The position numbers were made by a program, and so were the translations under genes. The notes beneath the pieces were generated by a model that ran no database searches, had not been told where the DNA came from, and was given only the letters and a program-made list of their open reading frames with translations. Below are positions 38,985 through 40,435 of a stretch of DNA of 64,000 nucleotides, in pieces; the stretch's first letter is position 1, and the number at the start of each line of letters is the position of its first letter. The stretch comes from Pirellula sp. (lineage in GTDB: Bacteria; Planctomycetota; Planctomycetia; Pirellulales; PNKZ01): the NCBI GenBank assembly GCA_013822735.1, contig PNKZ01000008.1, positions 124,001 to 188,000 on the forward strand. The letters are read 5' to 3'.

Positions 38985-39440
38985 GTGTCGCACTACGAAG
39001 TTGCCTCCGCTCCCCCGGGAGGTTTTTCAGTTCCGCTCCCGCCGGCAATCGAACATCCGACGGAGTTTCCGCCGCCGAGCCGCGCTGCCGTCGATCAGCG
39101 CGTCGCCACTTCGACCGACGTCGCCTCGCAACTCCGCCGAGCCTCGTGCACGGCCGTTTCGCGTCTGACGCTCTTCGGTACGCTCCTCGTCGTTCGCATC
39201 TTTTCCTCCGTCTTCGGCATCGTCCGACGTCATGCGCCTGCGACGGACAAGATTGCCCGACGCGGTGCCGCGACCGACGGCACGCGGAGCGTGCCTACTA
39301 CATTGCAAAGGCCCGCACGCTTCGAAACCCCGCAGGGGTTTCATTACAGAGCCCGGAGTCGCGTAGCGCACTCCGGGTCGGCGACACTCGCTTCTCGTCT
39401 GTATAACCCCGACGGGGTTCCACAGATCATTGAGTTGTGA
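38985..39440 (+). CDS. hypothetical membrane-anchored protein with repeat-derived C-terminus
   Basis: A reading frame of 151 codons that starts with GTG behind AGGAG seven bases upstream, which argues that translation begins here. The N-terminal ~105 residues look coding (MSHYEVASAPPGGFSVPLPP; LTLFGTLLVVRIFSSVFGIV as a possible membrane helix). The last ~40 codons, from about 39324, run through a cassette of hairpins that looks like a mobile repeat, so the original C-terminus was probably lost or replaced. It may be a broken gene. No family is recognised. Confidence 0.45.
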   Translation: MSHYEVASAPPGGFSVPLPPAIEHPTEFPPPSRAAVDQRVATSTDVASQLRRASCTAVSRLTLFGTLLVVRIFSSVFGIVRRHAPATDKIARRGAATDGTRSVPTTLQRPARFETPQGFHYRARSRVAHSGSATLASRLYNPDGVPQIIEL

Positions 39441-39503
39441 TTGTGTCACCCAGGGTGCGCTAAAGCGACCCTGGGCTTTGATGTGAAACGCCGTTCGCGT
39501 TTC
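39324..39503. repeat. cassette of five consecutive hairpins
   Basis: Five perfect or near-perfect stem-loops follow each other. They are GAAACCCC-GCA-GGGGTTTC (39324-39342), CCCGGAGT/ACTCCGGG (39352-39377), AACCCC-GAC-GGGGTT (39405-39419), CCCAGGGT/ACCCTGGG (39449-39475) and GAAACGC/GCGTTTC (39485-39503). The first and last stems start with GAAAC and the third resembles the first. Such arrays are known as interspersed repeats in several phyla, but their origin and function are unclear. Confidence 0.8.
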
Positions 39504-39814
39504 CGTCGGCGATGTCAACACAGTTTTTGGCCGGCCTCAATTTGAATGAAGTCTCAAGTTCCGGTCGCTCACGCTCCGGCTCGCCTCCAGAATTCATCTC
39601 CCACATCCCCTCCGATCCCCCTCATCTCCCTTTCTTCTTGGCGTCTTTGCGTCTTGGCGCGCACTACGAAAACAAAATCTCAGCCGGCCAAAAATCGCCT
39701 GGATTTTGGGCCGGCAGTTCTTGGATGATGGGTTTGTTTTCGCGTCGGCGCGCCGGCGGAAATTCGAGCGCCCGATGCGATTCATGCCCACTTCACAGAA
39801 CGGGAGAGACGGCC
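39441..39814. other. repeat-rich intergenic region
   Basis: It holds the end of the hairpin cassette and an imperfect inverted repeat (39683-39696 with 39702-39715; one mismatch) carrying GCCGGCC arms. An open frame runs through it in phase with the HTH gene, but its content (Ser/Pro/Arg) looks non-coding. Confidence 0.5.
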
Positions 39815-40435
39815 ATGGCGAAAAAGCGGAAGAAGTTCGATTTGGCGACGCAGGAGCGGCTCTGTGCGATGGTGAGCGTCGGCACTTCGGTGCGGTCGGC
39901 GGCGCTTCTCTGCGACACGACGGAGGCCACGGTACGGCAGCGGCAGTTGCGTGATCCGGCGTTTCGCCAGCGGCTGACCGAAGCGAAGCAATTGCGAGAA
40001 ATCATGCCGCTGAAGCGTCTGCGGGAGGCGGCCGCCACGAATTGGCGGGCCGCGGCGTGGCTGCTGCAGCGCATTCGGCCGGAATACTACGCCGGTCCTA
40101 AGCCCGACCTGTGGCGTACCGAGGACGTGTCGGCGATGATGTGCGACTTCGCCGACATGCTGGTGAAAGCCTTGAAACGGGAAGTCGGCCCCGGCGAAGC
40201 TCTCTCGCGCGTCTGCCAAGAACTTCGGGCGGCGGTTCGCAACGTCGATGATGTGCAGAGAAGCGGGTCCGATCTCGTTGCGAGGAATTGGCCGAAGGTG
40301 CGGCAAGGAAGGAAGAGTTCGCAACGCGGGCCGGCGAAAGCCGCGGGAGTCGACGGCGCGTCGCGTCCGGTCGACACGGCCGAGGAGGATAAAGCGCGCG
40401 ACCGCGACTTCCCCGGACACGGAGCACACCGATGA
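39815..40435 (+). CDS. helix-turn-helix protein, terminase small subunit-like
   Basis: A 206-residue protein starting MAKKRKKFDLATQERLCAMV. A helix-turn-helix is predicted at about residues 10-45 (VSVGTSVRSAALLCDTTEAT), followed by a helical segment (LREIMPLKRLREAAATNWRA then AAWLLQRIRPEYYAG). This arrangement resembles terminase small subunits or transposon-associated HTH proteins, but no phage gene is near. The C-terminal ~60 residues are basic and low in structure. The start is fixed by GGGAGAG. It may be an orphan remnant of a mobile element; this is not shown. Confidence 0.6.
   Translation: MAKKRKKFDLATQERLCAMVSVGTSVRSAALLCDTTEATVRQRQLRDPAFRQRLTEAKQLREIMPLKRLREAAATNWRAAAWLLQRIRPEYYAGPKPDLWRTEDVSAMMCDFADMLVKALKREVGPGEALSRVCQELRAAVRNVDDVQRSGSDLVARNWPKVRQGRKSSQRGPAKAAGVDGASRPVDTAEEDKARDRDFPGHGAHR

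What the first reader, a model, noticed from the sequence alone, without database searches (positions are those of the whole stretch)
39324..39503. Five-hairpin cassette forming the 3' end of an open frame
Five consecutive stem-loops with short loops, two of them sharing GAAAC starts, occupy 180 bases. The first part lies in frame at the end of the hypothetical protein that starts at 38985 with a good ribosome-binding site, so about 40 codons at its C-terminus are repeat-derived. This suggests insertion of a structured mobile cassette into a gene, or a non-coding RNA element of unknown function.
Basis: partly seen in the sequence, partly recalled or inferred. Interest (0 to 1): 0.6.

Follow-up and report, generated by a model that had tools for sequence, protein, structure and literature searches.

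The report
Miniature mobile element with inverted hairpins
The five hairpins are the two mirrored ends of a tiny DNA element that appears to be moved by a single-strand-cutting transposase coded elsewhere in the same planctomycete genome, and its ends link a poorly understood transposase class to a repeat type it was thought to lack.

Summary
The five stem-loops at 39324-39503 are real and far beyond chance (fold z = -10.7, none of 200 shuffles as good). They form one symmetric A-B-C-B'-A' element: two inverted copies of one 58-nt double-hairpin unit. The genome holds 14 such units at eight places, the window included. One place surrounds a 151-aa Y1 (HUH) transposase. The unit lies near 27 of 30 homologues of this transposase in the order, and inverted matching flanks occur in 56 of 64 loci from at least eight phyla. 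The stems covary strongly (16 of 18 pairs). The cassette is best read as a non-autonomous, REPIN/MITE-like element of that transposase. Movement itself is inferred: I found no clean empty site. The enzyme carries the Y---Q--HH signature of TnpA-Y1 subclass 1.2, which the literature describes as generally lacking terminal structures; here it systematically has them. That is the new point. The open frame at 38985 has no credible ortholog in 296 other genomes of the order, so "insertion into a gene" is unsupported; the frame merely runs into the element.

The parts
39323..39379 (-). left end: double-hairpin unit (B then A read on the - strand)
   Evidence: model R1, 73.5 bits, E 3.9e-14; the window's arms were in the training set
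39447..39504 (+). right end: double-hairpin unit (B' then A')
   Evidence: model R1, 74.2 bits, E 2.8e-14; same caveat
39324..39342 (.). hairpin A, GAAACCCCGCAGGGGTTTC
   Evidence: perfect 8-bp stem, 3-nt loop
39352..39377 (.). hairpin B, CCCGGAGT...ACTCCGGG
   Evidence: perfect 8-bp stem; covaries with other copies
39405..39419 (.). central hairpin C, AACCCCGACGGGGTT
   Evidence: 6-bp stem, extendable to 39398-39426; present once or twice in other copies
39449..39475 (.). hairpin B', CCCAGGGT...ACCCTGGG
   Evidence: perfect 8-bp stem
39485..39503 (.). hairpin A', GAAACGCCGTTCGCGTTTC
   Evidence: 7-bp stem
38985..39440 (+). open frame of 151 codons that runs into the element; probably not a conserved gene
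   Evidence: open frame, no credible homologue, weak codon signal

Best explanation
The cassette is a non-autonomous, REPIN/MITE-like mobile element. It is made of two inverted copies of a double-hairpin end unit around a short spacer with a third hairpin. It is the end-only form of an element whose complete form carries a 151-aa HUH Y1 transposase of the TnpA-Y1 subclass 1.2 type (one complete copy in this genome, contig C18:56675-57592). Shown: the shared unit, its inverted arrangement, its dispersed copies, its tight association with this transposase, and covariation of the stems. Inferred: the transposase, supplied in trans, binds the folded hairpins in single-stranded DNA during replication, cleaves next to them with its tyrosine, and carries the element to new, mostly intergenic sites. 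The open frame at 38985 reads into the element by chance or is an orphan gene extended by it.
For: Eight composite or partial copies align in the own genome; 14 units in own, 16 in G001, 11 in G003, 0 in G002. The C18 copies flank a PF01797 / NF033573 transposase. R1 hits lie close to 27 of 30 transposase homologues (21 at E <= 0.01), typically 50-110 bp outside the gene and in inverted orientation, and in none of seven loci of other Y1 genes of the same genome. The upstream flank matches the reverse complement of the downstream flank beyond 20 shuffles in 56 of 64 loci; 0 of 8 loci of ordinary IS200-like (class 1.1) enzymes do. Covariation: 96.6% of cells paired, 16 of 18 pairs with double changes, slid controls collapse.
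Against: No empty site or excision event was found; flanks are not conserved enough among relatives. Only 14 units in the genome, diverged from each other, so it may no longer move. G016 holds 17 units and no Y1 transposase, so units persist without the enzyme. Alignment A3 was fitted to the model's structure, which inflates pair counts.
Confidence: 0.85

Rival explanations
1. A structured RNA or transcription terminator/attenuator at the end of a gene; the hairpins act in the transcript.
For: Very stable RNA fold; palindromic repeats elsewhere can terminate transcription or stabilise mRNA (PMC6006769).
Against: No Rfam match. Units sit in inverted orientation at both ends of transposase genes in many genomes, which an RNA role does not predict. 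It could be a secondary effect.
Confidence: 0.06
2. A static palindromic repeat family that serves the host (for example as a protein binding site) and merely happens to lie beside transposases, or is used by them as an insertion target.
For: G016 has 17 units without any Y1 transposase; insertion of IS elements into REP sequences is known (PMC1525189, abstract only).
Against: An insertion target would be split by the transposon; here two inverted units frame the gene at a similar short distance in many unrelated loci, and complete elements such as L054 have single units at each end.
Confidence: 0.07
3. The frame 38985-39440 is a true gene whose C-terminus was replaced by insertion of the element.
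For: Start codon with an upstream AGGAG; weak coding-like codon signal in the part before the element.
Against: No orthologue in 296 other genomes of the order; the frame already crosses another dispersed repeat before the element; the region is not conserved in same-genus genomes.
Confidence: 0.12

Closest known systems
REPINs / BIMEs with RAYT (TnpA-REP) transposases (PMC3116915, PMC2817692)
   Same: Inverted pair of palindromic repeats folding into a long hairpin; dispersed; a Y1 HUH transposase gene flanked by the same repeats.
   Different: Transposase is class 1 (Y---Q--HH), not class 2 (Y---NP); no GT[AG]G tag; each unit is two hairpins; few copies.
TIRtrons / TIRYT (PMC3733652)
   Same: Y1 transposase framed by inverted, partly double-palindromic repeats that also occur as dimers elsewhere in the genome.
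   Different: TIRYTs are mostly class 2.1 enzymes with a C-terminal HTH-like extension (PMC6006769); here a 151-aa class 1 enzyme without it.
IS200/IS605 insertion sequences and their palindrome-associated non-autonomous copies
   Same: Enzyme family (NF033573 above cut-off); subterminal hairpins at both ends; end-only copies.
   Different: Ends are inverted double hairpins; in IS608-type elements both end hairpins are read on the same strand (own knowledge).
TnpA-Y1 subclass 1.2 (Quentin et al. 2018, PMC6006769)
   Same: Y---Q--HH signature, low copy number.
   Different: Published as generally without terminal secondary structures and mostly Cyanobacteria/Bacteroidetes; here with such structures and common in Planctomycetota.

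Membership tests
REPIN/REP with RAYT | two inverted palindromic repeats with spacer, able to form one long hairpin | tested here: met
REPIN/REP with RAYT | class 2 RAYT enzyme (Y---NP; NF047646 above cut-off) | tested here: not met
   YVSRQMEHH; NF047646 24.3 bits against cut-off 80
REPIN/REP with RAYT | GT[AG]G tetranucleotide at the foot of the hairpin | tested here: not met
   foot of A is mostly TGTG/TATG and no GT[AG]G precedes either hairpin in the 13 arms
REPIN/REP with RAYT | high copy number (over 100) | tested here: not met
   14 units
TnpA-Y1 subclass 1.2 | Y---Q--HH motif | tested here: met
   own enzyme and 63 of 66 homologues
TnpA-Y1 subclass 1.2 | low genomic copy number | tested here: met
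   one copy in own genome, 1-5 in others
TnpA-Y1 subclass 1.2 | generally no terminal secondary structures | tested here: not met
   the published wording is a generality, so this amends the description rather than excludes membership
TnpA-Y1 subclass 1.2 | position in the authors' phylogeny or subclass profile | not tested
   their sequences and profiles were not at hand; my tree separates class 1.1 on a long branch but does not show the Y---Q--HH set as one clade
IS200/IS605 | single-domain HUH Y1 transposase | tested here: met
   PF01797 86.8 bits, NF033573 62.4 bits over cut-off 55
IS200/IS605 | insertion without target duplication next to a short target motif | tested here: inconclusive
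   no duplication seen beside copies, but exact ends are unknown
TIRtron | inverted, self-complementary terminal repeats framing a Y1 gene | tested here: met
TIRtron | class 2.1 transposase with C-terminal HTH-like domain | tested here: not met
   151 aa, only Y1_Tnp matched
Rfam RNA family | match above gathering score | tested here: not met
   0 matches in the window

The most novel reading that the evidence does not exclude
TnpA-Y1 subclass 1.2 transposases are not structure-less orphans but the enzymes of a separate, widespread REPtron-like lineage: they recognise inverted double-hairpin ends and spawn end-only elements in many phyla, independently of class 2 RAYTs and without a GTAG tag.
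Probability: 0.6. Interest if true: 0.6.

Novelty: new variant of a known kind. Interest (0 to 1): 0.45.

Why it matters
REP/REPIN biology rests almost entirely on class 2 RAYTs. A class 1 enzyme with inverted double-hairpin ends and end-only copies would show that the REPIN way of life arose more than once, or earlier, in the Y1 superfamily. It gives a concrete enzyme-substrate pair to test and a likely explanation for some unannotated hairpin repeats and repeat-derived protein tails in planctomycete annotations.

Tried and rejected
Rfam and tRNA: nothing. Solved structures by sequence: none at E 0.001. Empty site via the HNH locus in relatives: the stretch in between is not homologous. Empty site via C1:233k: only repeats matched, flanks not conserved. 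Orthologues of the 38985 frame: none credible. Control flaw: the seven control Y1 loci used Pfam-domain edges instead of gene ends; with gene-based flanks three of the four that could be scored (L033, L036, L037) also have inverted flanks. I therefore rely on class 1.1 loci (0 of 8, some near-identical copies) and on the unit-specific R1 search (0 of 7) as controls. Structure prediction was not run, because the enzyme family is already clear by profile.

Full report
Observation. Their order is a mirror image: the reverse complement of the left pair (A, B) aligns with the right pair (B', A') over the whole 58-nt unit, including the unpaired linker GGGCT(T/C)TG..(A/G)TG between the hairpins. In the best fold the two B arms pair with each other in one long arm with C near the tip; with DNA energies this long form is favoured over five separate hairpins, -54.9 against -36.1 kcal/mol.

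Copies. BLAST of the cassette against the own genome and 39 relatives gave ten matches in the own genome and matches in eight of the 40 genomes. Reading the own copies shows A-B-C-B'-A' or A-B-C-C'-B'-A' forms, with truncated versions at C1:571k and C33. Sequence differs between copies but pairing is kept: stem B alternates CCCAGGGT/ACCCTGGG and CCCGGAGT/ACTCCGGG, stem A alternates GAAACCCC, GAAACGCC and AAACCGC with matching partners. A covariance model of the unit (R1) finds 14 units at eight places in the own genome, 16 and 11 units in two same-genus genomes and none in a third, and matches in 21 of 58 genomes sampled from the order.

Transposase. At C18 the units surround a 151-aa gene, C18:56951-57403: A-B-C-C'-B'-A', then the gene, then C-B'-A'. 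It is a Y1 HUH transposase (PF01797 86.8 bits; NF033573 transpos_IS200 62.4 over cut-off 55; the REP transposase equivalog only 24.3 against cut-off 80). Homologues occur in 55 of 118 genomes of the order and, among named records, in Planctomycetota, Bacteroidota, Ignavibacteriota, Acidobacteriota, Sumerlaeota, Fibrobacterota, Thermodesulfobacteriota and Nitrospirota. R1 finds the unit close to 27 of 30 of the order's homologues (21 at E <= 0.01), typically 50-110 bp outside the gene on either side in inverted orientation, and in none of seven loci of other Y1 genes of this genome. Independently of the model, the upstream flank matches the reverse complement of the downstream flank beyond all 20 shuffles in 56 of 64 loci. 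Loci of ordinary class 1.1 IS200-like enzymes show this in 0 of 8; class 2 loci in 2 of 4, as expected for RAYT/TIRYT elements. A minimal complete form is readable at L054: A-B-C-gene-B'-A'. The window cassette is this form without the gene.

Covariation. Over 127 units from own and related loci (A3), 96.6% of cells are paired, 16 of 18 pairs show double changes, and sliding partners by one column drops pairing to about 50%. The alignment was fitted to the structure, so the size of the effect is inflated, but the 13-arm MAFFT alignment, whose structure was predicted rather than imposed, already shows double changes in five pairs.

Class. The tyrosine motif is YVSRQMEHH; 63 of 66 homologues have Y---Q--HH. 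Quentin et al. [quoted passage not shown] The present loci depart from the last two points. I could not place the enzyme with the authors' own profiles; my tree separates class 1.1 and class 2 sequences on long branches but does not prove that the Y---Q--HH set is one clade. The literature searches found no paper linking subclass 1.2 to such repeats; the library holds only open-licence papers, and the Bertels 2017 paper did not turn up in it.

The open frame. The frame 38985-39440 reads through A, B and C and stops in the spacer; 38 residues are element-derived. It also crosses a second dispersed palindrome at 39279-39295 (43 sites genome-wide against 2 for the reversed control). It has no homologue in six same-family genomes, and only repeat-derived matches elsewhere in its own genome; there is one marginal match in 296 other genomes of the order. 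The upstream HNH gene is conserved in all seven genomes, but the stretch after it is not: in G001 it is different sequence, and in G002, G003 and G006 the ferredoxin gene follows. Codon statistics are weakly coding-like. So the insertion-into-a-gene reading cannot be shown; the interval is a variable intergenic region rich in repeats.

Mechanism. By analogy with IS608 and TnpA-REP enzymes (established knowledge; PMC8266576, PMC3116915), the transposase probably acts on the single-stranded, folded ends, for instance on the lagging strand. The paired stems are under selection (supported by covariation). The unpaired, nearly invariant CT after stem B and the TRTG before stem A are the best candidates for guide or cleavage positions (inference). 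Movement has not been observed here.

Verdict. A new variant of a known kind: REPIN/TIRtron-like architecture on a subclass 1.2-type enzyme.

Noticed in passing
window 39279-39295: Another dispersed palindromic repeat (GGCACRCGGAGYGTGCC), 43 sites in the genome, several as inverted pairs about 100-250 bp apart; it lies inside the same open frame.
   Followed up: partly
window 39524-39535 and 39683-39694: A third repeat with GGCCGGC arms directly 3' of the cassette; similar GGCCGGCC stretches sit beside cassette copies at C33 (L020 about 2694-2745) and C9 (L019 about 2380), and at the syntenic place in G001 without the cassette (L080 2629-2664).
   Followed up: partly
window 39815-40435: Small gene that only weakly resembles a phage terminase small subunit (E 0.067), kept at the same place in G001 (66% DNA identity).
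   Followed up: no
genome G016: 17 units of the repeat but no Y1 transposase at all in a 94% complete genome: orphan repeats, or the gene is in the missing part.
   Followed up: no
L015 2197-3699: A 500-aa open frame upstream of the C18 transposase also runs into the cassette end and takes its last residues and stop from it, apparently after a frameshift near its natural end.
   Followed up: no
L017 2340-2458: A different inverted repeat (CCCAGGTTGC) abuts the left end of the cassette at C1:233k; a 93% identical copy stands at C6:2262-2374.
   Followed up: no
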